Assembly: GCF_900112415.1 (NCBI RefSeq)
Contig: NZ_FOLV01000007.1
Location: 62,001-126,000, forward strand
Direction of reading: 5' to 3'
Length of the DNA stretch: 64,000 nt
From: Bacillus sp. 491mf
GTDB lineage: Bacteria; Bacillota; Bacilli; Bacillales; Bacillaceae_G
The position numbers and the translations under genes are program-made. The notes beneath the pieces are model-generated. The model was not told the origin of the DNA. It saw only the letters and a list, made by a program, of their open reading frames with translations, and ran no database searches. Below are positions 2,850 to 57,546 of the stretch, one piece after another. Position 1 is the first letter of the stretch. Every line of letters begins with the position of its first letter.

Positions 2850-4568
2850 ATGAAAGTAAATAAAAAACAAGTGATTAAACTACTTGAGACAATTGCACTT
2901 TTCATGGAACTAAAAGGGGAAAATCCTTTTAAAATATCAGCATTTCGTAAAGCGGCAGCAGCATTAGAAAGCGATGATCGTAGCCTTTCAGAAATTGAAG
3001 ATTTCACAAAAATACCAGGAATCGGAAAAGGAACAGCAGCCGTTATTGCAGAATATATTGAAGTTGGAGCATCAGAAGTGCTTACAGAGCTTGAAAAAGA
3101 AGTACCGAGCAGCTTATTACCGCTTTTGAAATTACCAGGTCTTGGTGGGAAAAAGGTCGCTAAGTTATATAAAGAACTTGGCGTTGTAGATATGGAAACT
3201 TTAAAGAAAGCTTGTGAGGAAAAGCAAGTGCAAGCACTTGCTGGGTTCGGTAAGAAAACGGAAGAGAAAATACTAGAGGCTATCGCACAAGTTGGTACTA
3301 GACCCGAACGTCTTCCGATAGCAATGGTGCTTCCTATTGCCGGGGAAATAGAGAGGAAATTGTCGAATATACCAGAAATTATTCGCTATTCTCGTGCGGG
3401 AAGTTTGCGCCGCGTTCGTGAAACAGTGAAAGATTTGGACTTTATTATTGCGTCATGGGAACCAGAAAAGGTGCGTGAGCATTTACTGCAGTTTGATAAT
3501 ATGATAGAAGTGATTGCAAGTGGTGATACAAAAGTTTCCGTACGCCTTCAATACGAATATGATATTTCGATTGATTTCCGTCTTGTGAAGCCGGAAGAGT
3601 TTATTACCACACTTCACCATTTCACTGGTTCAAAAGACCATAATGTAAGAATGCGCCAAATTGCAAAAGATAAGGGCGAGAAAATTAGTGAATATGGCGT
3701 TGAAAACTTAGAAACGGGAGAAGTACAAACATTCGAAACAGAAGAAGCGTTTTTTGCACACTTTGGACTTCCATTCATCCCGCCAGAAGTACGTGAAGAT
3801 GGAAAAGAGATTGATCTCACTCTGCAATATCCGAATTTTGTTCAATTTCCTCATATTCAAGGTGATTTACATATGCATACAACGTGGAGCGATGGTGCTT
3901 TTTCTATTGAAGAAATGGTACAAGCATGCCGCGCTCGTGGATATAAGTATATGGCGATTACGGATCATTCTCAGTACTTGAAAGTAGCGAATGGATTAAC
4001 GAAAGAGCGCCTTTTTGAACAACGAAAAGAAATTGAACGTCTGAATGAAAAGTATCCGGATATCACTATTTTACGTGGTATTGAAATGGACATTTTACCA
4101 GATGCAACACTAGATTTTGATGACGATGTATTAGCAGAGCTTGATTATGTCATCGGTGCCATTCATTCTAGTTTCTCACAAGACCGTGAAACAATTATGA
4201 AGCGTCTGCGCGCTGCAATTGAAAATCATCATGTAACAATGATTGCGCATCCGACAGGCCGATTAATTGGTCGCCGCGAAGGCTATGATGTCGATACAGA
4301 CTTATTAATTGAGCTTGCGAAAGAAACAAATACTGTACTTGAATTAAACGCAAATCCAAACCGTTTAGACTTAAGTGCGAAGCTGCTAAAGCAAGCGCAA
4401 GATGCGGGTGTGAAAATCGCCATTAATACAGATGCTCATACGCTTGAAATGTTAGAGGATATGGAAATTGGCGTGGCAGCTGCGCGCAAAGGTTGGATTC
4501 AAAAAGATACAGTTATTAACACATGGGATATTGAACGTTTATTAGATTATATTAAGCGTAATAAGTAA
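2850..4568 (+). CDS. polX: DNA polymerase X family with PHP domain
   Basis: Gap-filling DNA polymerase/3'-5' exonuclease used in base excision repair. The 572 residues contain N-terminal helix-hairpin-helix motifs (about 50-125), a polymerase beta-like nucleotidyltransferase core with GS...DLD metal ligands (about 184-197) and a third Asp in IDFRLV, and a C-terminal PHP phosphoesterase domain beginning HMHTTWSDG (about 341) and ending with the INTDAHT motif. GGCGGGAG-type ribosome-binding site precedes the ATG. mutS2 follows 20 bases downstream. Confidence 0.95.
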
Positions 4569-4588
4569 CACAAGGGGGACGTGCAACT

Positions 4589-6949
4589 ATGTTAGAACGA
4601 ACGTTGCGTGTATTAGAATATGAAAAAGTAAAAGAACAATTACTCGAACACGTTGCTTCTTCACTTGGACGAGATAAAGTAAAAGGGCTTGTACCAAGCA
4701 CAGATTACGAAGAAGTAGTAGAAATGCAGGAAACAACAGATGAGGCAGCAAAAGTCATCCGTTTAAAAGGACATGTACCGCTTGGCGGGATCTTTGATAT
4801 TCGCCCAAATGTGAAGCGTGCGAAAATTGGTAGTATGCTAAGCCCGCATGAACTTTTAGATATTGCAAGTACGATGTATGGTAGCCGCCAGATAAAAAGA
4901 TTTATTGAAGATATGATTGAAAATGGTGTGGAACTGCCGATTTTAGATACGTATGTAGCGCGCATTGTGTCTTTATATGATTTAGAAAAGAAAATTACAA
5001 ATTGTATTAGTGATGGCGGAGAAGTAGTGGATAATGCGAGTGAAAAATTACGTGGTATTCGCCAGCAAATTCGCACAGCGGAAAGTCGCATTCGTGAAAA
5101 ATTGGAAAACATGACGCGGTCTTCTAACGCACAGAAGATGTTGTCAGATGCAATTGTAACGATTCGTAACGATCGCTATGTAATTCCAGTTAAACAAGAA
5201 TACCGCGGTGTCTATGGTGGTATCGTTCATGACCAGTCTGCTTCTGGTCAAACGTTATTTATCGAGCCGCAAGTCATTGTAGAACTGAATAACGCCTTGC
5301 AAGAAGCGCGCGTGAAAGAAAAGCAAGAAGTAGAACGCATTTTAATGATGTTAACAGAAGAAGTAGCAACTGAAACTGATATCATTTTAGAAAACGTCGA
5401 CGTTGTGGCAGAGCTTGATTTCATTTTCGCAAAAGCTTTCTATGCAAAACGATTAAAAGCAACAAAACCAATTTTGAACAATGAGCGTTATATGAACTTG
5501 CGCCAAGCACGTCATCCGCTTATTGATCCGAAAGTTGTTGTGCCAAATGATATTGTACTTGGAAAAGAATTTACAACAATTGTTATTACAGGGCCGAATA
5601 CAGGAGGTAAAACCGTTACATTAAAAACGGTAGGGATTTGTATTTTAATGGCGCAATCTGGTTTGCACATTCCTGTTTTAGATGAGTCCGAAATTTGCGT
5701 GTTTAAAAATGTGTTTGCCGATATCGGTGATGAGCAATCGATTGAGCAAAGCTTAAGTACATTCTCCTCTCACATGGTAAACATTGTTGAGATTTTAGAA
5801 CAAGCTGACTTTGAAAGCTTAGTATTGTTTGATGAATTAGGAGCAGGGACAGATCCGCAAGAAGGGGCTGCACTTGCGATTTCCATTTTAGATGAAGTTT
5901 ATAACCGCGGTGCGCGCGTTGTCGCAACGACGCATTATCCTGAATTAAAAGCATACGGCTATAATCGTGAACAAGTCATTAATGCAAGTGTTGAGTTTGA
6001 TGTAAACACATTAAGCCCAACGTATAAATTGTTAATCGGTGTACCAGGGCGAAGCAACGCTTTTGAAATTTCAAAACGTCTTGGGTTATCTGACCGTGTA
6101 ATTGACCGTGCTCGTGGTCACATTAGTACAGAATCAAATAAAGTAGAAAATATGATAGCGAAGCTAGAAGAAAGCCAAAAGAATGCTGAGCGTGAGTGGA
6201 ATGAAGCAGAAGAGCTTCGTAAGCAATCTGAAAAACTTCATAAGGAAATGCAGCGTCAAATTATCGAATTTAACGAAGAACGTGATGAAAGATTACTAAA
6301 AGCACAAAAAGAAGGCGAAGAAAAAGTCGAAGCGGCGAAGAAAGAAGCGGAAGGAATTATTCGTGAACTTCGTCAATTGCGAAAAGCAAAGCTTGCTGAC
6401 GTTAAAGATCATGAGCTAATTGAGGCGAAAAGCCGTTTAGAAGGGGCAGCGCCGGAGCTTGTGAAAAAACAACAAACAAAAGTGAAAAACACAGCACCAA
6501 AACAAGTGTTAAGACCAGGCGACGAAGTAAAAGTATTAACGTTCGGTCAAAAAGGTCAGCTTCTGAAAAAAGTAAGCGACAACGAATGGAACGTCCAAAT
6601 CGGAATTTTGAAGATGAAGGTAAAAGAGTCTGATATGGAATATATTAACACGCCAAATCCTGTTGAGAAAAAAGCAGTGACAGCGGTAAAAGGAAGAGAC
6701 TATCACGTTTCATTAGAACTTGATCTTCGTGGGGAACGTTTTGAAGATGCGTTAGCACGTGTAGAAAAATATTTAGATGATGCACAGCTTGCAAGCTATC
6801 CGCGCGTTTCCATTATTCACGGAAAAGGAACCGGAGCACTGCGTCAAGGTGTACAAGATTACTTGAAAAAACATCGCGGCGTGAAGAGCTTCCGTTATGG
6901 TGATATGGGCGAAGGCGGCCTTGGTGTTACAGTTGTAGAACTGAAATAG
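4589..6949 (+). CDS. mutS2: endonuclease MutS2
   Basis: MutS paralogue linked to suppression of recombination and, in B. subtilis, to rescue of collided ribosomes. The 786 residues include the MutS core helices, Walker A GPNTGGKT (about 334-341), Walker [14 protein letters not shown] (about 411), a long charged coiled coil (about 520-630), a KOW-like segment (about 640-690) and a C-terminal Smr nuclease domain with LDLRG and HGKGTG (about 710-786). There is no N-terminal mismatch-recognition domain, which separates it from MutS. Start ATG has AAGGGGG upstream; likely co-transcribed with polX. Confidence 0.96.
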
Positions 6950-46880: not shown

Positions 46881-47012
46881 TCTTTGAAGGATTCATAAAT
46901 TATTCAAATTTGTACAGATCTTTTTGAAGATAAGTTGTCATTGCTTGTTCTAAAGTAAGATAGAGGCTCGTATATATATAGTACAAACTTAGATTTTTTA
47001 GGAGGAAAGCGT

Positions 47013-48053
47013 ATGCCTAAATCGACTTTCAAATGGATTGTTTGTGCTACATTAAGTACAGTTTTATTAACAGGGTGCGGTTTGTTTAATAAGGAAAAAG
47101 CAACAGAGCAAATTGATCCGCCTAAGAAAGTAACATATACGGATGGTGAGAAGAAGGAAACTGCAAAACAAGGGGAAACAAAAAAATTAGATCTATATCT
47201 TGTAGATAAAAATGGTTATGTTGTGCCGCAAACGGTGCAGTTACCTGTTCCGAAAGATAACGCGGTGATTAAGCAGTCATTACAATATTTAGTGAAAGAA
47301 GGACCAGTAACGAATGTATTGCCAAATGGATTTCAAGCTGTGCTCCCAGCGGATACAGAAGTGAAAATTGATTTGCAAAAGGATGGAACTGCAGTTGTTG
47401 ATTTTTCAAAAGAACTGAAAAACTATAAAAAAGAAGAAGAGCGTCGTATTGTAGAAGCGGTTACTTGGACATTAACACAGTTTAAAGAAGTAAAGAATGT
47501 GAAGTTCAGCATGAATGGGCAAGATTTAACGAAAATGCCTGTTGCTGGAACACCGATTGGTAATGGGTTCAGCCGAGCGAATGGTATTAACTTTGATGAT
47601 GAACAAGTTGCGGATCTTGCAAATACAAAACCAATTACGCTGTATTTCTTAGCGCAAAATAATAAGCAAACGTATTATGTGCCAGTAACACGCCGCGTTG
47701 CTGAAGGGAAAGAAAATGAAACTGCGACAATTGTGAAAGAGCTTGTGAAAGGACCGTCGCAAAAGTCGGCGTTAACATATGACTTTAATCCAGATGTGAG
47801 GCTGATCAATGAGCCAAAACTTGAAAAAGGGACAGTGACATTGAACTTTAATGAAAATATTTATGCGGATAAAAATAAAAGTAAGATTTCTAACTATGTA
47901 TTGCAGTCGCTTGTGTTATCTTTAACTGAAAAACAAGACGTGAAAAATGTGTCCATTCAAGTGAATGGAAAGGCAAATCTTGTTACAGAAAAAGGCGATA
48001 AATTAATAAAACCGATTGATCGTCCACAAAACGTGAATACAGGTAGTTTTTAA
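47013..48053 (+). CDS. gerM: spore germination/sporulation protein GerM
   Basis: 346-residue lipoprotein: signal with lipobox LLTGC (Cys about residue 22), then two GerMN domains (about 75-190 and 215-330), each with the beta-rich NFxENIY/VDFSKEL type edge. In B. subtilis it is needed for normal sporulation and germination and interacts with the SpoIIQ-SpoIIIAH channel. AGGAGGA precedes the ATG. Monocistronic with terminator. Confidence 0.93.
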   Translation: MPKSTFKWIVCATLSTVLLTGCGLFNKEKATEQIDPPKKVTYTDGEKKETAKQGETKKLDLYLVDKNGYVVPQTVQLPVPKDNAVIKQSLQYLVKEGPVTNVLPNGFQAVLPADTEVKIDLQKDGTAVVDFSKELKNYKKEEERRIVEAVTWTLTQFKEVKNVKFSMNGQDLTKMPVAGTPIGNGFSRANGINFDDEQVADLANTKPITLYFLAQNNKQTYYVPVTRRVAEGKENETATIVKELVKGPSQKSALTYDFNPDVRLINEPKLEKGTVTLNFNENIYADKNKSKISNYVLQSLVLSLTEKQDVKNVSIQVNGKANLVTEKGDKLIKPIDRPQNVNTGSF

Positions 48054-48085
48054 ACAGAAATAATTTGATATACTGAATAGAGGAA

Positions 48086-48118
48086 GAGAAGGGGAATACA
48101 ATTAATTCCCCTTCTTTT
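48086..48118 (+). terminator. intrinsic terminator of gerM
   Basis: 10-bp perfect stem (48088-48097 with 48105-48114), T-run. Confidence 0.85.
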
Positions 48119-48187
48119 AATGCGATACATAACATGAATTTTTAATGGGCTATACTAACAAGTAGTAGTTACAAGGGGGTTATTTTT

Positions 48188-48925
48188 ATGCGAGTAGATG
48201 GTAGACAAGCATCAGAGCTGCGCCGTATACATATTCATACGAATTATTTGAAACATCCAGAAGGATCGGTACTAATTGAAGTTGGTGATACAAAGGTGAT
48301 TTGTACAGCGACGATTGAAGATCGAGTTCCTCCATTTATGAGAGGGGAAGGAAAAGGATGGGTTACCGCAGAGTATTCCATGATTCCTCGTGCAACAGAA
48401 CAACGTACGATCCGTGAATCAAGTAAAGGAAAAGTAACAGGGCGTACAATGGAAATTCAACGTTTAATTGGACGAGCATTACGTGCTGTTGTTGACTTAG
48501 AAGCACTTGGTGAAAAAACAATTTGGATTGACTGTGATGTTATTCAAGCTGATGGTGGAACGAGAACAGCTTCGATTACCGGTGCGTATGTAGCGATGGT
48601 GTTAGCATTTGAGAAGCTTGTGGAAGCAGGAAAAGTATCGAAAATTCCAGTGAAAGATTTCTTGGCGGCAACGTCTGTTGGAGTCGTTGATGAGCATGGT
48701 ATTGTATTAGATTTAAATTATGCAGAAGATTCTAAGGCGAATGTTGACATGAATGTCATTATGACAGGAAAAGGACACTTTGTTGAAGTGCAAGGCACAG
48801 GAGAAGAAGCGACATTTAGCCGCGGCGAATTGAACGAGTTACTTGATGTAGCGGAACATGGGATTCTGCAGCTTGTTGAAATCCAAAAAGAAGCATTAGG
48901 TGATATTGTAACTCATATGGAATAG
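48188..48925 (+). CDS. rph: ribonuclease PH
   Basis: 245-residue phosphorolytic 3'-5' exonuclease trimming tRNA 3' ends. [14 protein letters not shown] at the N-terminus, [27 protein letters not shown] and [22 protein letters not shown] contain the phosphate- and metal-binding residues. AAGGGGGT precedes the ATG. First gene of rph-rdgB-ysnB, 10 bases before rdgB. Confidence 0.97.
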
Positions 48926-48935
48926 AGGTGGAAAT

Positions 48936-49547
48936 ATGAAACAAGTTGTCGTAGCAACAAAGAATGCTGGCAAAGTACGTGAATTTGCGGAGCTATTTGA
49001 AAAGTTTGATTTAGAAGTAAAGTCACTTTATGATTTTCCTCATATTGAAGAAGTAGAGGAAACGGGTGAAACGTTTGAAGAAAACGCCATTTTAAAAGCG
49101 GAACATCTATGTAAACAGCTAGGTGAAATTGTAATTGCTGATGATTCTGGTTTAATTGTAGATGCATTGCAGGGGAAACCAGGAGTACACTCTGCTCGTT
49201 ATGCAGGTGAACAAAAGGACGACCAAGCTAACATTCAAAAAGTGTTAGACGGACTAGAGAATATTTCGATGGAGAAACGTACAGCACGTTTTTACTGCGC
49301 ATTAGCCGTTGCTTTCCCGCAAGAAGATAAAGAACCATTGCTTGTAAATGGTACGTGTGAAGGAAAGATTTTGCAGCAGCAGCGCGGGGAAAATGGATTT
49401 GGATACGACCCTATTTTTTATGTAGAAGAATACAAAAGCGCAATGGCGGAATTGTCATCGGATGAGAAAAATAAAATTAGTCACCGCGGACGTGCGCTTC
49501 GTAAATTAGAAGAAAAAATTCCAGTCTGGTTTTTAGGAGAAGAATAA
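48936..49547 (+). CDS. rdgB: XTP/dITP pyrophosphatase (RdgB/Ham1)
   Basis: 203-residue house-cleaning NTPase that removes ITP and XTP. Motifs [48 protein letters not shown] and SHRGRAL are intact. Overlap-free operon with rph and ysnB; AGAGGTGG precedes the ATG. Confidence 0.96.
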
Positions 49548-49560
49548 GGGAGCGAAACCG

Positions 49561-50067
49561 ATGAAGGCGTTAATTGTGAGCGACAGTCACAGTTCTGTGA
49601 AAGAGCTAAAGCAATTAAAGGAGCAGTACGAGGGAAACGTAGATGTGATGATTCATTGCGGTGACTCGGAATTAACATCTCAGCATTCTGAACTAGAAGG
49701 GTTTCATGTAGTGAAAGGAAACTGTGATTTTACGGGATCCTTTCCAAATGATATCATCACAGAAGTGCAAAATACACGTTTTCTCGTCACACATGGACAT
49801 TTATACAATATTAAAATGACGCTGCAAACACTTTTATATCGCGCGAAAGAAGCTGAGGCTAATGTCGTATGCTTCGGTCATTCGCATATATTAGGAGCAG
49901 AAATCTTAGACGATATTTTGTTTATCAATCCAGGAAGCATTCTCTTGCCGCGCTCGCGCAGAGAAAAAACATTTGCCTTACTTGAAATAGAAGAGGGTAT
50001 CATGGACGTTCGTTTTCTTACTTTAGAAGGAACAATCGTAGCACAAAAAACATTTAAAATAGGGTGA
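49561..50067 (+). CDS. ysnB: YfcE/MJ0936-type phosphodiesterase
   Basis: 168-residue calcineurin-like metallophosphoesterase. Metal-site motifs are all present: DSHSS, HCGDSE, GNCDF, THGH, GHSH. Relatives act on phosphodiester substrates with Mn2+; natural substrate unknown. AAGGGAGCG precedes the ATG. Last gene of the rph operon. Confidence 0.92.
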   Translation: MKALIVSDSHSSVKELKQLKEQYEGNVDVMIHCGDSELTSQHSELEGFHVVKGNCDFTGSFPNDIITEVQNTRFLVTHGHLYNIKMTLQTLLYRAKEAEANVVCFGHSHILGAEILDDILFINPGSILLPRSRREKTFALLEIEEGIMDVRFLTLEGTIVAQKTFKIG

Positions 50068-50089
50068 AAAATTCTTCACCCTATTTTTT
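50056..50089 (+). terminator. intrinsic terminator of rph-rdgB-ysnB
   Basis: 13-base arms (50056-50068 with 50074-50086) and T-run; overlaps the ysnB stop. Confidence 0.9.
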
Positions 50090-50100
50090 AAAAAATGGTG

Positions 50101-50129
50101 TTGACTTTCGTTGGTATCGATAATATAAT
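50101..50129 (+). promoter_or_regulatory. sigma-A promoter of the tRNA pair
   Basis: -35 TTGACT (50101-50106), 17-base spacer, -10 TATAAT (50124-50129); start of transcription near 50136, 33 bases before tRNA-Gly. Confidence 0.85.
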
Positions 50130-50168
50130 GAATAATGTCGATGAGGCAATTAGAAAAAATCATATGAC

Positions 50169-50242
50169 GCGGGTGTAGTTTAGTGGTAAAACAAGAGCCT
50201 TCCAAGCTCTGGTCGAGAGTTCGATTCTCTTCACCCGCTCCA
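50169..50242 (+). tRNA. tRNA-Gly (anticodon UCC)
   Basis: Complete cloverleaf: acceptor GCGGGTG/CACCCGC, anticodon stem AGAGC/GCTCT around CTTCCAA, T-loop TTCGATT, encoded CCA (50240-50242). One base separates it from the following tRNA gene, so they share a transcript. Confidence 0.97.
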
Positions 50243-50243
50243 T

Positions 50244-50605
50244 GTCCCAGTAGCTCAGCAGGATAGAGCAACGGCCTTCAAGAATAGGAGCCTTTATAGG
50301 GAAACAAGAACCTATAAAGTGGACGACACTATATCGGTGAAGCCTTAACAGTACGGCTGATGGTAATACCGAGGAAACTTACGATCTTCTAAAGAAGATT
50401 GAGGAGTCTTGAATGATCAAGGAATCACCTTGATGGTAAAAACTCTAAAGTATGATGAAAATCATCGTGAGGTTCCGTAGAGACTACACGTGTCGCACCT
50501 GAAATGGTGAAGATATAGTCCAGACTACAAACAGTATTTGCTGGTAGCGAAAGCTATAGTGGTAAGCTAAGCCGTCGGTCGGGAGTTCGAATCTCTCCTG
50601 GGACG
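50244..50605 (+). tRNA. tRNA-Arg (anticodon UCU) interrupted by a group I intron
   Basis: Exon 1 is 50244-50278 and exon 2 is 50567-50605. Joined, they give a normal 74-base tRNA: acceptor GTCCCAG/CTGGGAC, D-stem GCTC/GAGC, anticodon stem ACGGC/GCCGT with loop CTTCTAA (anticodon TCT), T-stem GGGAG/CTCTC with loop TTCGAAT. The CCA is not encoded. The split lies between anticodon positions 34 and 35. Whether this is the only tRNA-Arg(UCU) gene of the genome cannot be seen here. Confidence 0.93.
50279..50566 (+). ncRNA. group I intron (288 nt, no ORF) in tRNA-Arg(UCU)
   Basis: The 5' exon ends in U and the intron ends in G (50566), as group I splicing requires. P1: exon GGCCUU pairs with the guide GGAGCC (50287-50292), placing a U-G wobble at the splice site. 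P2: 50292-50300 with 50311-50319. P3: CGACAC (50324-50329) with GTGTCG (50490-50495). P7: GACTA (50482-50486) with TAGTC (50516-50520), enclosing P3' and P8 (CACC 50496-50499 with GGTG 50506-50509). P9: TAGC-GAAA-GCTA (50545-50556). The AAGATATAGTCC segment (50510-50521) is the conserved P7/J8-7 core. Hairpins at about 50390-50445 fit P5/P6-type extensions. Subgroup assignment by eye (IA-like core) is tentative. Confidence 0.92.
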
Positions 50606-50610
50606 CTACA

Positions 50611-50642
50611 GAGAAGTGCATGAGTGCACTTCTTTTTTTTTA
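50611..50642 (+). terminator. intrinsic terminator of the tRNA transcript
   Basis: 10-bp stem GAAGTGCA-type (50612-50620 with 50625-50632) and a run of more than eight T. Confidence 0.9.
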
Positions 50643-50682
50643 CCCCTTACATCGTTTAGATAAATGGTGTAAGGGGTTTTTG
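50642..50682 (+). terminator. second terminator-like hairpin
   Basis: ACCCCTTACATC pairs with GGTGTAAGGGGT (one mismatch) followed by TTTTTG, directly after the first terminator. A third perfect hairpin, CCTGCTTTAAC with GTTAAAGCAGG (50721-50753), follows and may be the terminator of a lost gene. Confidence 0.7.
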
Positions 50683-50816
50683 TTTTGCTCAAAAGAAATA
50701 CAGGAACATATAATCTGTAACCTGCTTTAACTTTTGACTAATGTTAAAGCAGGATATTTGAAAAAGGGATAGAATATTTAAATGAAAAATTTTGTGGTTT
50801 ACAAGGTAATCATTTT

Positions 50817-51347
50817 TTGTTAGAAAATCTAAATAGTCAAAGAGAGCGGTGGAATAAAAATATGCTAGGCAACTACGGTGGAATGTTAATAGAGCATACA
50901 GATTTATTCTTAGTATATTGTCCTAGATGTAATGGTTGTGGGAGGGTTTTTACTCCTGATAACGCAAAGGGAAAAGGTGAGCCTAGATATATAGGTCATG
51001 AATTGAAACGGTTTTTATGTAGTAAATGTGGATTAACAAAAGACATTCATCCTAAAAGAAGATGGGATAATTCATGGGCATTTAATCATGAATTATTTAA
51101 TGCCAAACATGGTGTTGATTGGTACTTTGGTTTACCTTTATATTTGCAAAAGGAATGTTGTGGTCATAAGCTTTGGTTCTTTAATCTTGAACATCTTCAT
51201 CGTGTAGAAGATTATGTTCAGCAACGCTTAAGGCCATTTAGACCATATTATTTAAGTGTCGAAAGTAGACTTCCAAAATGGATAAAACTTTCAAAGAATA
51301 GAAATGAAATTCTTAAGACAATAGAAAAGTTGAAGTGTACGATTTAA
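50817..51347 (+). CDS. zinc-ribbon protein of unknown function, N-terminus doubtful
   Basis: At least 176 residues. Two metal-type Cys clusters are visible: YCPRCNGCGRVF and FLCSKCGL, plus KECCGHKLWFFN. This suggests a zinc-binding nucleic-acid-associated protein. The only in-frame start near the beginning is TTG 50817, with a poor AAGG site. The frame remains open and protein-like upstream to 50748 (…EKGIEYLNEKFCGLQG…), without any start codon, so the gene may have lost its true 5' end. It lies in the accessory island beyond the tRNAs. Confidence 0.6.
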   Translation: MLENLNSQRERWNKNMLGNYGGMLIEHTDLFLVYCPRCNGCGRVFTPDNAKGKGEPRYIGHELKRFLCSKCGLTKDIHPKRRWDNSWAFNHELFNAKHGVDWYFGLPLYLQKECCGHKLWFFNLEHLHRVEDYVQQRLRPFRPYYLSVESRLPKWIKLSKNRNEILKTIEKLKCTI

Positions 51348-51444
51348 TTTGGATTGTGAGGAGAGGTTTAAAGATCTTGTTATACAACTCGGAGCTTGGG
51401 GGTATGAAAAAGACACGAGTTATAAAACTTTCTAGGTTCAGAAT

Positions 51445-51483
51445 GAAAAAAGGAAAGCGTCGAAAAGACTGCTTTCCTTTTTT
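51445..51483. terminator. bidirectional terminator
   Basis: Stem AAAAGGAAAGC/GCTTTCCTTTT (51447-51457 area with 51471-51481) with A- and T-runs, between the zinc-ribbon gene and the convergent PH-domain gene. Confidence 0.8.
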
Positions 51484-51494
51484 GTAGTTCTACA

Positions 51495-52109
51495 TTAATT
51501 GTTAATAAACTTCTCAAACGCAAATCCAAAATCTTTTACATTGTATTGTTTCTTCGTATCAACAAGCCAGTTGAATGCAATTTGATTAATTTCTTTAAAC
51601 TGTGCTGCAAGATCTACTTCGGCATTTCTTACATTACCTAATGTAGAAGATGCCATTTCTAGGCTTTTATGTGCGTATTGCGTTGCGATGTCGTTTTCAT
51701 GAGTAATTTCAGCAATTTTTAGAAGGGCTTTATATAAATCTTTCACTTCTTCAATATGTTTTTTATGTATATCAATGGAGTAATGTTCTCCGCCCATAGT
51801 AAATTTAATTTCAATATCTAAATCGACAGTTCCAGCCGTTTCAAGCAGGACGTTAGAGATTTTATGAGTGTTGTAATTGTAGCGGCGAAGTGTACGTTTC
51901 TTGCTTACCGCACTCGTGCCGTCAACGTGAATAAGAGCAGTATTTGTAAAGCAATACTCGTCTGTTTTCGATTTGATTAAAAAATAAATTTTTTCATTTT
52001 CTTCATGCATGACATAATCATCAGCATCTACTTTATCGTAATCAGCAGGGGTAATAACGGATCCAATATCACTTAAGCCAAGCATATCAGCTGCGACTTT
52101 TTTGAACAT
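51495..52109 (-). CDS. bacterial PH domain protein, YvbH-like
   Basis: 204 residues. The N-terminal ~125 residues match the bacterial pleckstrin-homology fold (bPH_1: DADDYVMHEENEKIYFLIKSKTDEYCFTNTALIHVDG..KRTLRRYNYNTHKISNVLLETAGTVDLDIEIKF, cited in blocks), and the C-terminal helical hairpin (about 130-204) is the YvbH oligomerisation-type extension. Function unknown, cytoplasmic. AAAGGATGA precedes the ATG. Divergent from the following gene. Confidence 0.88.
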   Translation of the reverse strand: MFKKVAADMLGLSDIGSVITPADYDKVDADDYVMHEENEKIYFLIKSKTDEYCFTNTALIHVDGTSAVSKKRTLRRYNYNTHKISNVLLETAGTVDLDIEIKFTMGGEHYSIDIHKKHIEEVKDLYKALLKIAEITHENDIATQYAHKSLEMASSTLGNVRNAEVDLAAQFKEINQIAFNWLVDTKKQYNVKDFGFAFEKFINN

Positions 52110-52268
52110 AGTGAATCATCCTTTCGTTATTGTTTTCAGAATCATCGCAATAATATTATATCACTTGTGCAGAAAGAAATGTTAAGTATAAGCAGGAAGA
52201 AACGAACAGAGGAATGAAATTTTATAGTGGTAATTCCATTTGAGAAAATCTATATAGGTGGTGTAATT

Positions 52269-52682
52269 GTGTATCATCATACAAAAACAAAAGGAGATTT
52301 AGGAGTTTTAAAAGCACAGGTTGATTTATGCGAAAAAGGTTATATGATACTTGTTCCTCATACAGAGCATGCTCCTTTTGACCTTGTAGCTTATAAAGAT
52401 GGTGGTTTTAAACGGATTCAAGTGAAATATAGAGAATTGAATGATAAAGGAATTCTTGAAATAAGGTTTCGTTCTAGTTATTCAACTGGGAAAGGGACAA
52501 CTATGAAAAATATAGATAAAGAAGAAATTGATGTTTATTGTGTGTATTGTCCTCAAACTGATTTATGTTATTACTTTGATCCTAAAGTCTTTCGTAAATC
52601 GATTAGCTTAAGAGTTAAAGATCCGAAAAATTATCAAGAAAAGAATATAAATTTTGCAGATGAATATAGAGAAATTCCATAA
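52269..52682 (+). CDS. PD-(D/E)XK nuclease-like protein
   Basis: 137 residues from GTG 52269 (AGGTGG 7 bases upstream); an in-frame GTG at 52227 gives 14 more residues. The sequence TKGDLGVLKAQVDLCEKGY, PFDLVAYKDGGFKRIQVKYR shows the PD-(D/E)XK pattern: an acidic/helix part, Asp in FDLVAY, then Q-x-K in IQVK. Similar small proteins include the intron-homing type I-Ssp6803I and resolvase-like nucleases. Substrate unknown. Stand-alone gene, 1.6 kb from the tRNA intron. Confidence 0.65.
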   Translation: MYHHTKTKGDLGVLKAQVDLCEKGYMILVPHTEHAPFDLVAYKDGGFKRIQVKYRELNDKGILEIRFRSSYSTGKGTTMKNIDKEEIDVYCVYCPQTDLCYYFDPKVFRKSISLRVKDPKNYQEKNINFADEYREIP

Positions 52683-52827
52683 AACTACCCCAGTGTATGC
52701 ACAAGGAGGTAGTTTTTATTTTGAGAAATCTTACAATTCTGTAAGGTACATGTAAGGTAGTTCGATGGTAACTATTTTTAAACATTTTATAATAAAGGTA
52801 ACAAAGACGAAGCGAGGAGGAAAAATA

Positions 52828-52929
52828 ATGAAAGGATTAGCGGTAACAGCTTTAACAATTGCTTTTGGGGTTGTTGCATATGACAAACTAGCTGACATGA
52901 TCGAAGTTGTAAAACAGTTAATGGCATAA
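52828..52929 (+). CDS. 33-residue hydrophobic peptide
   Basis: GAGGAGG lies 6 bases before ATG 52828. The product has one hydrophobic segment (about 4-17) followed by an amphipathic helix (YDKLADMIEVVKQLM). I do not recognise it. The start signal is strong and the next gene starts 23 bases downstream, so the two are likely co-transcribed. Confidence 0.7.
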   Translation: MKGLAVTALTIAFGVVAYDKLADMIEVVKQLMA

Positions 52930-52952
52930 ATAAAGATTTAAGGGGAAAGAGA

Positions 52953-53201
52953 ATGGAATGGCTATTAGGAATGATTGGAGTTTGTAGTGTAATCTTATTA
53001 TTCATGCTTCCAGGCGGATTGTTAAGTTCAAGTGTAACTATACTTTTCGTCTGTTCAATAATCTGCACAATTATCATTATTATGTTGTTGATAAAGCGCA
53101 GTAAGGTTATGCTCTTTTTTGGAGTCATTGTGATGACGTTTATTGTTATTCAAATTATAACCCTCTTTATATATCCTACTATTATAGAAGCTTTCCAGTA
53201 G
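52953..53201 (+). CDS. 82-residue membrane protein
   Basis: AAGGGGAA upstream of the ATG. Three hydrophobic segments (about 3-22, 27-47, 53-77) separated by a short basic loop (IKRSK). No known family recognised. Followed by its own terminator. Confidence 0.7.
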   Translation: MEWLLGMIGVCSVILLFMLPGGLLSSSVTILFVCSIICTIIIIMLLIKRSKVMLFFGVIVMTFIVIQIITLFIYPTIIEAFQ

Positions 53202-53231
53202 ACTCTCCGCATCGGTAGCAGAGGGTTTTTG
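53202..53231 (+). terminator. intrinsic terminator
   Basis: 9-base arms with one mismatch and one wobble (53203-53211 with 53218-53226) followed by TTTTTG. Confidence 0.7.
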
Positions 53232-53406
53232 TTTTATATATAAAATTTCTACTTTCGTATTTTCCCCCTGATATATTCGATTTTTATATAGAAGAAATTG
53301 ATGTTTTCTCAATAAAAACGAACAGATTCCAATTATTGTGTTCGGAACTGTCATTTGTTATATTAACTTTAAAGTGTATTGAAAATCTAAAAAAAGAGGC
53401 GAGCGT

Positions 53407-54414
53407 ATGGATAAAAAAGAAAGTACGGTCGTATTGTTTCCGCAATTGTCAGCGCGATATACCGATGAAGGATTTATTGCATTGCGTGAGCGTCGGTTTG
53501 AAGATGCGTTAAAAAACTTCGAAATGTTGCGCCAATACGGAGCACAGACAGAACAATCAGAATTAGCTTCAGTTATTTGCTTGCTAGAATTAAAGGAAAT
53601 GGAAGAAGCGAAAGAACGATGTGAGAAATTACTTGAAACAGGGGAGTTCTTATTTCAAGATATTCTCGAAACGTACATTACGATTTTAGTGCAGACAAAT
53701 GATTACGAAGGTATTATTGAAACGGTGCAGTCTGTTTTACAAACGAAAGAAGTAACAGTAGAGCAAAAGGAAAAGTTAGCACAACTTGCCTTGTTTGCAA
53801 AGAGTATGCTTGAGAGTGAAGAAGCAGTAGTAGAAATAGATGGCGGTTTATCTTTTGATGAACCTGCGTTTGCGGATGCTTTACTGACGGGTGACTACGG
53901 GGAGCAACTGCGCGCGGTGAATCGTCTTGCGACTAAACATGTCGAAAAGGCGCTGCCGACGTTACGTACATTTTTATTAGATGAAACGAAACACCCGTAT
54001 ATTAAAACTTCTATCTTATATGTATTAATGGATTTCGGAATACAAGAAAAGGTAGATATAGAAAAGTTTGGTGAGACAATAACGGTTATACCGGCTAATT
54101 TGGCTTATAATCAATACGATACAGAAAAAGTGTTACATATATTGTCTGAACGATTAGAGCATGATAATCCGTCGATGTATGGGGCAATTATTACATATTG
54201 GAAAGAAATGCAGACAAGTCTCTTCCCGTTTCCTCTATTAACAGATAAAGATGAATTATGGGCAGCTGTTTTAGAGAGAGTTGGAAGGAAACGTTTTGGA
54301 ATGCCAATCGATGAAGAGAAGCTTCTTCAGGAGTATGGTATTACACTGGAAGAATATCATATTGCATATCAGTGGTTTTTACGTATTGAGAAAGAAGGGT
54401 TTATGCCAGTATAA
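53407..54414 (+). CDS. ysoA: TPR-containing protein YsoA
   Basis: 335-residue helical-repeat protein. The N-terminal half has tetratricopeptide-like repeats (EGFIALRERRFEDALKNFEMLRQYG, cited as RRFEDALKNFEML), an acidic linker and a HEAT-like C-terminal half. Position just before tig as in B. subtilis ysoA. Function unknown; probably a scaffold. AGAGGCGAG precedes the ATG. Confidence 0.85.
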   Translation: MDKKESTVVLFPQLSARYTDEGFIALRERRFEDALKNFEMLRQYGAQTEQSELASVICLLELKEMEEAKERCEKLLETGEFLFQDILETYITILVQTNDYEGIIETVQSVLQTKEVTVEQKEKLAQLALFAKSMLESEEAVVEIDGGLSFDEPAFADALLTGDYGEQLRAVNRLATKHVEKALPTLRTFLLDETKHPYIKTSILYVLMDFGIQEKVDIEKFGETITVIPANLAYNQYDTEKVLHILSERLEHDNPSMYGAIITYWKEMQTSLFPFPLLTDKDELWAAVLERVGRKRFGMPIDEEKLLQEYGITLEEYHIAYQWFLRIEKEGFMPV

Positions 54415-54435
54415 TGAAAAAGAATGTTTCAGTTA

Positions 54436-54497
54436 TTGAAACGAGAGTATTCTATGTTATAATGTAAGGGTTGCAAAAGGCTTAAGTCTGCCTTTTT
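54436..54497 (+). promoter_or_regulatory. tig promoter with early hairpin
   Basis: -35 TTGAAA (54436-54441), 16-base spacer, -10 TATAAT (54458-54463). Start would be near 54470. A hairpin AAAAGGC/GCCTTTT with T-run (54475-54497) lies immediately downstream; it may terminate ysoA transcripts or attenuate tig. The remaining leader to tig is about 240 bases and contains another hairpin (54565-54572 with 54578-54585). Confidence 0.6.
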
Positions 54498-54736
54498 ATA
54501 AGAGAACCGAAACACATATTCTCTTACTTATATGTTTCATACTATTCTCGAACAAAATATACCGTATTTGTCTTTTCGACAAATAGTAGATTGAGAAGTA
54601 TATGTCCAAAGCTTTTCGTGATGGATAGAAGGCTGAATTTATCAGTTTGCGTTTGTTGTTTCTTTATAAGGAATGATAAAGGCCTCGATCTCTAGAGGTA
54701 TGTGCATACATTATTATAGTTGGAGGGAAAGAATAA

Positions 54737-56020
54737 ATGGCTGCAAAATGGGAAAAATTAGAAGGAAACGTTGGCGTTTTAACAATCGAAGTTGATGCGA
54801 AAGAAGTAAACAACTCTTTAGACGCTGCGTTCAAGAAAGTAGTAAAAACAATTAACGTACCGGGCTTCCGTAAAGGAAAAATGCCTCGTCCTCTATTCGA
54901 ACAACGTTTCGGTGTAGAGTCTTTATACCAAGATGCTTTAGATATCATCTTACCAAAAGCATACGGAGAAGCAATCGATGAAACTGGTATCTTCCCAGTT
55001 GCTCATCCTGAAATCGACATCGAGAAATTCGAAAAAAGCCAAAACTTAATTTTCACTGCAAAAGTTACTGTAAAACCTGAAGTGAAATTAGGCGAATACA
55101 AAGGCTTAACAGTAGAGAAAACAGATGCTACTGTAACTGACGAAGATGTTGAGAACGAATTAAAATCTTTACAAGAGCGTCAAGCTGAGCTTGTAGTAAA
55201 AGAAGATGGCACTGTAGAAGACGGTGATACAGCTGTAATCGACTTCGAAGGTTTCGTTGATGGCGAAGCATTCGAAGGTGGAAAAGGCGAAAACTACTCT
55301 TTAGCAATCGGTTCTGGCACATTCATCCCAGGCTTTGAAGAGCAATTAGTTGGTCTAAAAGCTGGCGAACAAAAAGAAGTAGAAGTATCATTCCCAGAAG
55401 AATACCATGCAGCTGAACTAGCTGGTAAGCCAGCGACATTTAAAGTAACAGTTCATGAAATTAAAGTGAAAGAACTTCCTGCTTTAGATGATGAGTTCGC
55501 AAAAGATGCAAACGAAGAAGTTGCAACTCTTGATGAGTTAAAAGCAAAAATTCGTGAAAACTTAGAAGCGAGCAAAAAGCAAGAAGCTGAGCACAAAGTT
55601 CGTGACGAAGTAGTAGAAAAAGCTTCTGCAAATGCAGAAATCGATATTCCAGAAGCTATGATCGAAACTGAGTTAGATCGTATGGTTCGTGAATTCGAGC
55701 AACGCTTAAGCTACCAAGGTATGAACTTAGAGCTTTACTACCAATTCACAGGTACTGATGAAGAGAAATTAAAAGGACAAATGAAGGAAGACGCTGCAAA
55801 ACGCGTAACAACTAACCTTGTTCTTGAAGAAATCATCAAAGCTGAAAACATCGAAGCAACAGAAGAAGAAGTAAATGCAGAAGTTGAAAAGATGGCTGAA
55901 ATGTACAGCATGCCAGTAGACGCTGTGAAACAAGCTCTTGGTAACGTTGAAGGTGTAAAAGAAGAACTTCAAGTTCGTAAAGCAGTAGATTTCTTAGTAG
56001 AAAACAGCAAGACTGCATAA
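54737..56020 (+). CDS. tig: trigger factor
   Basis: 427-residue ribosome-bound chaperone. N-terminal ribosome-binding domain with the signature GFRKGKMPR (about 42-50; family GFRxGKxP), FKBP-type prolyl isomerase domain (about 150-245; [30 protein letters not shown]), C-terminal helical arms (about 250-420). GGAGGGA precedes the ATG. Monocistronic. Confidence 0.98.
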
Positions 56021-56026
56021 TAAAAT

Positions 56027-56059
56027 AACAAGGCGCGACATTGCTCGTGCCTTGTTTTA
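56027..56059 (+). terminator. intrinsic terminator of tig
   Basis: Stem AACAAGGC-CGA with TCG-GCCTTGTT and T-rich tail. Confidence 0.85.
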
Positions 56060-56280
56060 TAAATATAAATATATTTGTAAAACATTTTGTTATGAAGAAG
56101 GAAATGATTCTTTAAGAGTCGAATATACATATTTCAAAAGTTTTAAAAATTATTTGTACATAACTAACCATATTATTTGTATTTCTCGCCACGTAGTGAC
56201 ATAATATGTATTTACATACGATACATTTATCGTGTACATACGAAGGCAAGGTTTTAGCACTTTGTAAGGGGTGTGAAAAT

Positions 56281-57546
56281 ATGTTTAAATTTAATGATGA
56301 AAAAGGACAATTAAAATGTTCCTTCTGTGGTAAAACACAAACGCAAGTTCGAAAACTTGTGGCAGGTCCTGGGGTTTACATTTGTGATGAATGTATTGAG
56401 CTTTGCACAGAAATCGTGCAAGAGGAGCTTGCAAAAGACGAAGAAGTAGAATTCAAAGATGTACCGAAGCCGGTAGAAATTCGTGAAATTTTGGATGAAT
56501 ATGTAATCGGACAAGATCAAGCGAAGAAAGCATTAGCGGTAGCGGTATATAATCATTACAAGCGCATTAATTCTAGCAGCAAAATTGATGATGTAGAATT
56601 AGCGAAAAGTAATATTTCTTTAATTGGGCCAACTGGTAGTGGTAAAACATTATTGGCTCAAACGTTAGCACGTATTTTAAATGTTCCATTTGCAATTGCT
56701 GATGCAACATCTTTAACGGAAGCTGGATATGTAGGGGAAGATGTAGAAAACATCTTATTAAAACTTATTCAAGCGGCTGATTATGATGTAGAGAAAGCAG
56801 AAAAAGGAATCATTTATATTGACGAGATTGATAAAGTGGCTCGTAAGTCAGAAAATCCGTCAATTACGCGTGACGTATCTGGTGAGGGTGTGCAACAGGC
56901 GCTTCTTAAAATTTTAGAAGGAACTGTAGCGAGCGTTCCGCCTCAAGGTGGTCGTAAGCATCCGCATCAAGAGTTTATTCAAATTGATACAACAAACATT
57001 TTATTCATTTGCGGCGGTGCATTTGATGGTATTGAACCAATCATTAAACGCCGTCTTGGTGAAAAAGTGATTGGCTTCGGTTCTGAGAAGAAAAATGCTG
57101 ATGTAACAGAAAAGCATGTTTTATCGCATGTATTGCCAGAAGATTTATTAAAATTTGGATTAATTCCAGAATTTATTGGTCGTCTTCCAGTTATTGCGAA
57201 CTTAGAACCGCTTGATGAAGGTGCTCTTGTTGACATCTTAACAAAGCCGAAGAATGCACTTGTGAAGCAGTTCCAAAAATTATTGGAGCTTGATGATGTT
57301 GAATTAGAGTTTGAAGAAGATGCTCTTGTTGAAATTGCTAAAAAAGCAATTGAACGTAAAACAGGTGCACGTGGACTTCGTTCTATCATTGAAGGTTTAA
57401 TGCTAGATGTGATGTTCGAACTTCCATCTCGTAAAGACATTGAAAAATGTGTAATTTCAAAAGAAACAGTAACAGAAAATGCAACGCCAAAATTAGTGTT
57501 GCAAGATGGTACTGTGCTTGAGCAAGATACAAAAACATCTGCATAA
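56281..57546 (+). CDS. clpX: ATP-dependent protease ATPase subunit ClpX
   Basis: 421-residue AAA+ unfoldase that feeds ClpP. N-terminal C4 zinc finger (CSFCGKTQ...CDECIELC, about 12-40), Walker A GPTGSGKT, Walker [13 protein letters not shown]-type ClpP loop ([11 protein letters not shown]) and sensor-2 region [16 protein letters not shown] 56281 with AAGGGGTG upstream gives MFKFNDEKG; the frame extending to 56206 is unlikely to be translated. Confidence 0.98.

What the first reader, a model, noticed from the sequence alone, without database searches (positions are those of the whole stretch)
50244..50605. tRNA-Arg(UCU) gene split inside the anticodon by a 288-nt group I intron
The exons form a perfect arginine tRNA only if the 288 bases 50279-50566 are removed. 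The removed piece has a U at the 5' exon end, a terminal G, a P1 guide with U-G at the cleavage site, and P3, P7, P8 and P9 in correct group I order. Known bacterial tRNA introns of this class sit in the anticodon of tRNA-Leu(UAA), tRNA-fMet, tRNA-Arg(CCU) or tRNA-Ile, mostly of subgroup IC3. Here the core string AAGATATAGTCC looks like that of IA-type phage introns, which would be unusual in a tRNA. If this is the only gene for this tRNA, growth depends on the ribozyme.
Basis: partly seen in the sequence, partly recalled or inferred. Interest (0 to 1): 0.88.

Follow-up and report, generated by a model that had tools for sequence, protein, structure and literature searches.

The report
Split arginine tRNA with detached homing enzyme
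An arginine tRNA gene in a Bacillus-like chromosome is split by an RNA segment built to cut itself out, and a gene for the DNA-cutting enzyme that rides inside the same segment in related bacteria sits separately just downstream, so the family shows a selfish two-part element joined, separated and decaying.

Summary
tRNA-Arg(UCU), 50244-50605, is interrupted after U34 by a 288-nt group I intron (50279-50566). On 22 aligned genes its helices pair in 98.2% of cells, with two-sided changes in 25 of 58 pairs. The IA reading fails: P8 follows P3 directly, and the core resembles a tRNA-Ile(CAU) intron (IC3 by recall), not T4 td or nrdB. The site is not new: 58 further loci carry it, and tRNA-Arg-TCT introns are published for Beggiatoa and Thiomargarita. 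By pattern, 0 of 22 intron-bearing relatives have an intronless copy; the window's own genome is not held.

The surprise lies outside the coordinates. ORF 52227-52682 is a PD-(D/E)XK (PF11645) endonuclease. Relatives lie inside this intron in some bacteria. In five loci, the window included, an intact gene lies outside an ORF-less intron. In 34 of 41 viral contigs a relative lies within 80 nt of an intronless tRNA-Arg(UCU). I read the window as a homing intron whose endonuclease is free-standing but linked, the collaborative-homing arrangement. Splicing and cleavage are untested; the direction of the move is only partly resolved.

The parts
50101..50129 (+). promoter-like site TTGACT-17-TATAAT ahead of the tRNA-Gly / tRNA-Arg pair
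   Evidence: 11 of 12 consensus matches; 11 sites found in the region against 10.8 expected in shuffles, so position and quality matter, not the count
50169..50242 (+). tRNA-Gly(TCC), directly upstream, presumably co-transcribed
   Evidence: ARAGORN; Rfam tRNA 70.8 bits
50244..50278 (+). tRNA-Arg(UCU) 5' exon, ends in U34
   Evidence: ARAGORN with introns; same split in 58 other loci
50279..50566 (+). ORF-less 288-nt group I intron, IC3-like: P1 50276-50278/50288-50290, P2 50292-50300/50311-50319, P3 50324-50329/50490-50495, P4 50334-50338/50368-50372, P6 50373-50376/50473-50476, P7 50482-50486/50516-50520, P8 50496-50499/50506-50509, P9 region 50524-50563
50567..50605 (+). tRNA-Arg(UCU) 3' exon, starts at C35, no encoded CCA
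50610..50635 (+). terminator-like hairpin after the tRNA
   Evidence: 4 terminator-like sites in the region, 1.3 expected
52227..52682 (+). free-standing PD-(D/E)XK homing-endonuclease-like gene (PF11645); likely start GTG at 52269 after AGGTGG, matching the ATG-YHHTK start of relatives
   Evidence: Pfam E 2e-38; PDB 2ost E 1.7e-6 by profile, 0.021 by single sequence; relatives inside the same intron; start inferred

Best explanation
The interrupted gene is the tRNA-Arg(UCU) of a tRNA-Gly/tRNA-Arg pair. Its 288-nt insert is an IC3-like group I ribozyme. With GTP as cofactor it cleaves after U34 (U-G pair of P1 with GAG), then joins U34 to C35 and releases the intron ending in G (50566), giving normal tRNA-Arg. 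It belongs to a homing family whose endonuclease is a PD-(D/E)XK enzyme aimed at the anticodon region of tRNA-Arg(UCU) genes. In the window the endonuclease is not in the intron but a separate intact gene 1.6 kb downstream. The likely function is that the enzyme cuts intronless tRNA-Arg(UCU) alleles and repair copies in the neighbourhood with intron and enzyme gene together; the intron itself protects the host copy by splitting the target. Shown: anatomy, conserved structure, family membership, linkage, purifying selection on the enzyme. Inferred: splicing, cleavage target, co-mobility, and that this enzyme gene left the intron rather than never having entered it.
For: Exons form a standard tRNA-Arg(tct). 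12 helices over 22 sequences: 98.2% of 1272 cells pair, 25 of 58 pairs have two-sided changes, 0 of 500 shuffles as good; sliding partners drops pairing to 31-40%. Core matches a tRNA-Ile(CAU) intron, 144 of 198 aligned positions identical. Intronless tRNA-Arg(UCU) pattern: 0 of 22 intron-bearing genomes, 11 of 12 intronless ones, the miss being G045. Enzyme family: PF11645 E 2e-38, 2ost E 1.7e-6. Same enzyme inside the intron in G008, G009, G010, G313 and two genomes of the gammaproteobacterial draw; intact and outside an ORF-less intron in G002, G004, G005, G006 and the window. In viruses: an ARAGORN-called intronless tRNA-Arg(UCU) within 80 nt in 34 of 41 contigs (my count; contigs), plus L135 read by hand and L170, where the tRNA carries this intron and the enzyme gene lies just beyond. 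Selection: G004 vs G005, both free, dN 0.10, dS 1.5; window vs G002 0.23, 1.56.
Against: No splicing or cleavage data. Rfam score is below gathering. P1 has only three pairs. The window's enzyme gene is 1.6 kb from the tRNA with two other ORFs between, unlike the four other free copies at 80-195 nt, so linkage there is looser. 47 of 59 intron-bearing genomes have no enzyme match at E 0.001, so most introns persist without it. 4 of 41 viral relatives do not touch a tRNA-Arg(UCU) (L157 at 432 nt, L167 and L168 beside tRNA-Ser(GCU), L173 none). Among 6 of 19 named-phage records looked at, 2 are beside tRNA-Arg(UCU), 2 beside tRNA-Asn and 2 beside no tRNA. Sequence upstream of the window's enzyme gene gives no significant intron remnant in its distal part (321 and 227 of 3000 shuffles as good).
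Confidence: 0.82

Rival explanations
1. The intron is an ordinary, now immobile IC3 tRNA intron inherited in the lineage; the nuclease gene nearby is an unrelated or domesticated nuclease and not its partner.
For: Most intron-bearing genomes lack an enzyme match (47 of 59). The window's copy is 1.6 kb away with two ORFs between.
Against: The enzyme's closest kin are inside this very intron (window's sister is G010's in-intron copy, supports 99/90, 99/88 and 96/89), and the same gene adjoins tRNA-Arg(UCU) in viral contigs whose tRNA has no intron.
Confidence: 0.2
2. The enzyme was free-standing first and entered the intron several times (the collaborative-homing pathway); the window shows the ancestral, not a derived, arrangement.
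For: All viral rows in the trees are free (the one in-intron viral contig, L166, was left out as decayed). In-intron copies are not one clade (p-AU 0.001 with gammaproteobacterial copies). A smaller test did not reject free Bacillales copies as one clade (p-AU 0.053).
Against: In-intron copies of Bacillota and of the gammaproteobacterial draw sit at the same place and all six examined end in the ribozyme core, which supplies their last codons; the tree needs 5 changes of state, so free-first means repeated entry at one site. G090 and G012 carry decayed intron pieces next to a displaced enzyme gene.
Confidence: 0.3
3. Subgroup IA intron acquired from a phage.
For: The string GATATAGTC also occurs in T4 td (alignment).
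Against: No P7.1/P7.2 space; core unlike T4 td and nrdB, like a tRNA-Ile(CAU) intron. Viral contig L170 does hold this intron family, but in a tRNA gene and with the same core.
Confidence: 0.03

Closest known systems
Group IC3 tRNA introns (Azoarcus-type tRNA-Ile(CAU), cyanobacterial tRNA-Leu(UAA) and fMet; subgroup assignments recalled; reviewed in PMC3984707, passages)
   Same: Anticodon position, short P1 with U-G, P2-P9 layout, P8 directly after P3, core sequence
   Different: Host tRNA is Arg(UCU), split U34|C35; companion enzyme can be outside
tRNA-Arg-TCT group I introns of Beggiatoa BOGUAY and Thiomargarita (PMC4853749, passages read)
   Same: Same tRNA gene interrupted
   Different: Reported as putative introns whose structure and type were not determined; no enzyme mentioned in the passages I saw
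I-Ssp6803I, PD-(D/E)XK homing endonuclease in the Synechocystis tRNA-fMet intron (PMC1995217, passages; that 2ost is this enzyme is recalled)
   Same: Enzyme family, tRNA intron home
   Different: Different tRNA; described inside its intron
Collaborative / trans homing in phages (PMC3984707, PMC2988022, PMC10448857, passages; F-CphI from the listing)
   Same: Free-standing enzyme linked to an ORF-less intron at its target
   Different: Here in a bacterial chromosome, in a tRNA gene, with joined, separated and decaying states in one family
T4 SegB, free-standing GIY-YIG enzyme between tRNA-Arg and tRNA-Ile (PMC2988022, passage)
   Same: Free-standing homing enzyme serving a phage tRNA region
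   Different: Different enzyme family and an intergenic target

Membership tests
Group I intron | Conserved P3-P4-P6-P7-P8 core with covariation | tested here: met
   P3 3 of 6 pairs with two-sided changes, P6/P6a 5 of 9; P4, P7 and P8 invariant and therefore uninformative but paired in 22 of 22
Group I intron | U at 5' exon end paired to G of the internal guide; G as last intron base | tested here: met
   (U-G in 22 of 22); G ends the intron in the 59 split genes, but the search pattern demanded it
Group I intron | GTP-dependent self-splicing | not testable with these tools
   needs RNA
Subgroup IC3 | Core like known tRNA IC3 introns | tested here: met
   against one tRNA-Ile(CAU) intron (L188, identified by me from its exons; IC3 label recalled). 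No subgroup covariance model was available
Subgroup IA | P7.1/P7.2 between P3 and P8 (recalled criterion) | tested here: not met
   P3 ends at intron base 217, P8 begins at 218
PF11645 PD-(D/E)XK homing endonuclease | Family profile and conserved D, Q-x-K residues | tested here: met
   D52, Q65 and K67 invariant in 10 sequences; in 20 sequences D52 and K67 stay invariant, Q65 falls below 90%; catalytic roles recalled from I-Ssp6803I
PF11645 PD-(D/E)XK homing endonuclease | Cuts the intronless target gene | not testable with these tools
   genomic association only
Collaborative homing pair | Free enzyme gene linked to an ORF-less intron at the same target | tested here: inconclusive
   linkage shown; target sharing inferred from relatives inside the intron and beside intronless tRNA-Arg(UCU)
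Sole tRNA-Arg(UCU) gene | No intact second copy in the genome | tested here: inconclusive
   own genome not held; 0 of 22 intron-bearing relatives have one by pattern, which missed 1 of 12 intronless copies

The most novel reading that the evidence does not exclude
The window holds a working two-part homing element on a bacterial chromosome: an ORF-less tRNA-Arg(UCU) ribozyme and a linked free endonuclease of a tRNA-Arg(UCU)-seeking clade that left the intron. The same clade runs from phage tRNA genes without intron, through free enzyme plus intron, to enzyme inside intron and back out, so one tRNA gene preserves the whole cycle by which mobile introns are assembled and taken apart.
Probability: 0.45. 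Interest if true: 0.78.

Novelty: new variant of a known kind. Interest (0 to 1): 0.62.

Why it matters
How self-splicing introns and homing endonucleases come together is an old question. [quoted passage not shown] Here one enzyme clade, one intron family and one tRNA gene show the enzyme beside an intronless gene, beside an intron-bearing gene and inside the intron, with fossils (G090, G012) and an intronless gene near an enzyme scrap (G045). It makes a clean test possible: same target, enzyme in or out. For annotation: the split gene is missed by ARAGORN in its default mode, and in the 22 intron-bearing relatives searched it was the only tRNA-Arg(UCU) gene that I found.

Tried and rejected
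IA subgroup: rejected by structure and by comparison with T4 td and nrdB. Rfam gathering cut-off as the judge: rejected, as it also misses the T4 introns.

The enzyme ORF at 52.2 kb lying in an intron of its own: no Rfam intron hit at 50600-53500, and the tRNA-region search of 47001-57000 found only the known copy.

C-terminus YREVP as proof that free copies came from the intron: weakened, because many viral copies beside intronless tRNA-Arg also end in or near D-Y-x-x-[IVF]-P. Intron remnant beside the window's enzyme: whole upstream stretch 0 of 300 shuffles as good against G008 and G009, but 153/300 against G313, 87/300 against G010 and 152/300 against its own intron; distal part not significant.

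Tree tests of direction: four in-intron copies one clade p-AU 0.17, plus G090 0.033, free copies one clade 0.053; with two gammaproteobacterial copies all in-intron one clade 0.001. Rows left out: 16 short, near-identical or distant rows and L166 (42 kept); 10 more long-branch rows (32 kept); 13 of the 42, with two rows added (31).

Identifying the host: nothing closer than 71% over about 1 kb of rph-rdgB in 13 genomes. Bacillus cereus-group-like is my recollection of the gene order only. Enzyme in plasmids: no match. A single-sequence scan of viral contigs found none; the alignment scan found 41. Enzyme in 398 Bacillota drawn from the phylum: 2 (G005, G012), and in 42 genomes of G313's order: 2. 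AlphaFold model: never run.

Full report
OBSERVATION. The gene is real and the coordinates are right. ARAGORN without introns reports only tRNA-Gly(TCC); with introns allowed it reports tRNA-Arg(tct) with a 288-nt intron at 50279-50566. A promoter-like site (TTGACT-17-TATAAT, 50101-50129) and a terminator-like hairpin (50610-50635) frame the tRNA-Gly/tRNA-Arg pair. Rfam Intron_gpI covers the intron at 26.0 bits, below gathering 50. The T4 stretch with the td and nrdB introns also gives nothing at gathering, nor do L188, L170, L121 and L104, so the cut-off does not decide.

STRUCTURE. I aligned 22 tRNA-Arg(UCU) genes carrying the intron: the window, 18 other Bacillota, two gammaproteobacterial MAGs and one viral contig. 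They were chosen from the 59 parsed for short introns, plus L170. The 58 pairs of P1 to P9 pair in 98.2% of 1272 cells; 25 pairs show changes on both sides and 0 of 500 shuffles reach any of the five measures. Slid partners pair in 31-40%. P4, P7 and P8 never vary and so say nothing by themselves. P1 is short: CUU of the exon with GAG, U-G at the cut, in 22 of 22.

SUBGROUP. P8 starts on the base after P3, so there is no room for the P7.1/P7.2 helices that mark IA (criterion recalled). Two core segments score far above shuffles against a tRNA-Ile(CAU) intron from the gammaproteobacterial draw (L188) and not against T4 td or nrdB. Over the whole intron 144 of 198 aligned positions are identical to L188. 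L188 was called tRNA-Leu(cag) by ARAGORN; I read its exons as tRNA-Ile(CAU). The intron is IC3-like.

DISTRIBUTION. A pattern for the 3' core plus 3' exon gave 62 loci in the species collection. 58 of them plus the window have a matching 5' exon with the break at the same base: 35 Bacillota-type (window included) and 24 proteobacterial-type, all 24 MAGs, 22 titled as gammaproteobacterial groups and 2 only as Proteobacteria. In a draw of 299 Bacillales genomes 14 have the intron core, so it is patchy. A pattern for intronless tRNA-Arg(UCU) finds it in 0 of 22 intron-bearing genomes and in 11 of 12 intronless ones; the miss is G045, whose intronless gene ARAGORN sees. So in these relatives the split gene is, by this test, the only one, and I infer that AGA decoding needs splicing. 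The window's own genome is not held.

THE ENDONUCLEASE. Longer introns of the family (G008, G009, G010, G313) carry an ORF. Its homologue in the window is the ORF at 52227-52682, outside the intron: PF11645 E 2e-38, PDB 2ost E 0.021 by single sequence and 1.7e-6 with a profile. In G002, G004, G005 and G006 an intact homologue begins 80-195 nt beyond the 3' exon while the intron has none. In 12 of 59 intron-bearing genomes there is a match or remnant at E 0.001; a 28-residue scrap in L058 is below that limit. Two introns of the gammaproteobacterial draw, L185 and L187, also hold it, at the same place, the ribozyme core CCGTAG supplying its last codons and stop. Free copies are under purifying selection (G004 vs G005 dN 0.10, dS 1.5; dS near saturation in most other pairs).

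VIRUSES. An alignment-based scan of viral contigs found 41 relatives. In 34 of 41 an ARAGORN-called tRNA-Arg(UCU) without intron lies within 80 nt, before or after the ORF (counted); it is the nearest tRNA in 27 of 41, and Arg(UCU) genes are 35 of the 183 tRNA genes called. L135 is a further case by its loop CTTCTAA. L166 holds a decayed copy inside a 633-nt intron. L170, with an ORF that I take by eye for a terminase, has the tRNA-Arg(UCU) with a 229-nt ORF-less intron of this family and the free enzyme gene beyond it; L169, 85% identical over 719 nt around the enzyme gene, has an intronless tRNA-Arg(UCU) in that place. The exceptions are L157, L167, L168 and L173. Several contigs are near-copies of each other and a few hold partial genes, so 34 is not 34 independent events. 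Of 19 named-phage records with a match I looked at six. Sf-FR1 and Herod have the gene just after an intronless tRNA-Arg(UCU). Two distant ones (26-28% identity) sit beside tRNA-Asn by ARAGORN, one of these being annotated tRNA-Met. HATV-2 and EFP01 have no tRNA next to it.

DIRECTION. Bacillota copies form a clade (99-100% bootstrap) that joins the gammaproteobacterial in-intron copies (86/85) apart from the viral ones; free and in-intron copies are mixed within it, the window pairing with in-intron G010. One shared entry site and decayed intron pieces beside the displaced enzyme in G090 and G012 favour exit from the intron at least there. G045 keeps an enzyme scrap about 1 kb from an intronless tRNA-Arg(UCU). 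For the window itself no intron remnant is significant in the distal upstream part. I put exit at about 0.6 to 0.7 for the window.

LITERATURE. Read as passages only: PMC3984707, PMC8450103, PMC4853749, PMC1995217, PMC10448857, PMC2988022. The 2008 survey of introns in 29 B. cereus-group genomes (seen as a reference) is not held, so I cannot say whether this intron is in it. The listings of searches (titles and abstract starts; 15 and 20 were cut at 20 rows) showed no paper on a Bacillales tRNA-Arg(UCU) intron or on tRNA-Arg-linked PD-(D/E)XK enzymes; that open-licence library is incomplete. PMC3984707 stated in 2014 that all phage introns observed until then were in protein-coding genes, which makes L170 notable.

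VERDICT. The intron alone is a new member of a known kind. The intron plus linked free endonuclease is a new variant, with a family that makes the origin of mobile introns testable.

Noticed in passing
L170 2632-2935 and 3013-3630; L169: Viral contig with this intron in a tRNA-Arg(UCU) gene plus a free enzyme gene, and a related contig with an intronless tRNA-Arg in the same place.
   Followed up: partly
L133, L134 (Ackermannviridae phages); L167, L168: Distant members of the enzyme family sit beside tRNA-Asn(GTT) or tRNA-Ser(GCT) by ARAGORN, as if each sub-clade serves its own tRNA gene.
   Followed up: partly
L111 (G045) 4599-4661 and 5680-5756: Intronless tRNA-Arg(UCU) with an enzyme scrap about 1 kb downstream, a possible trace of intron loss.
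   Followed up: partly
L108 (G090) 4438-5750, on the reoriented stretch: Intron-bearing tRNA, enzyme gene broken by an insertion, then a decayed second intron 3' half and 3' exon with the same downstream sequence: a tandem duplication fossil.
   Followed up: yes
window 50817-51347: 176-aa ORF with several CxxC motifs between the tRNA and the enzyme gene; no match in Pfam, PHROGs or NCBIfam.
   Followed up: no
L135 2920-2993; L188: ARAGORN misnames anticodons here (Pyl for what I read as Arg(UCU), Leu for Ile(CAU)).
   Followed up: yes
L140, L155, L156, L158-L165: The enzyme ORF ends inside the first bases of the following tRNA-Arg(UCU) gene, as it ends inside the ribozyme core in the intron form.
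   Followed up: no
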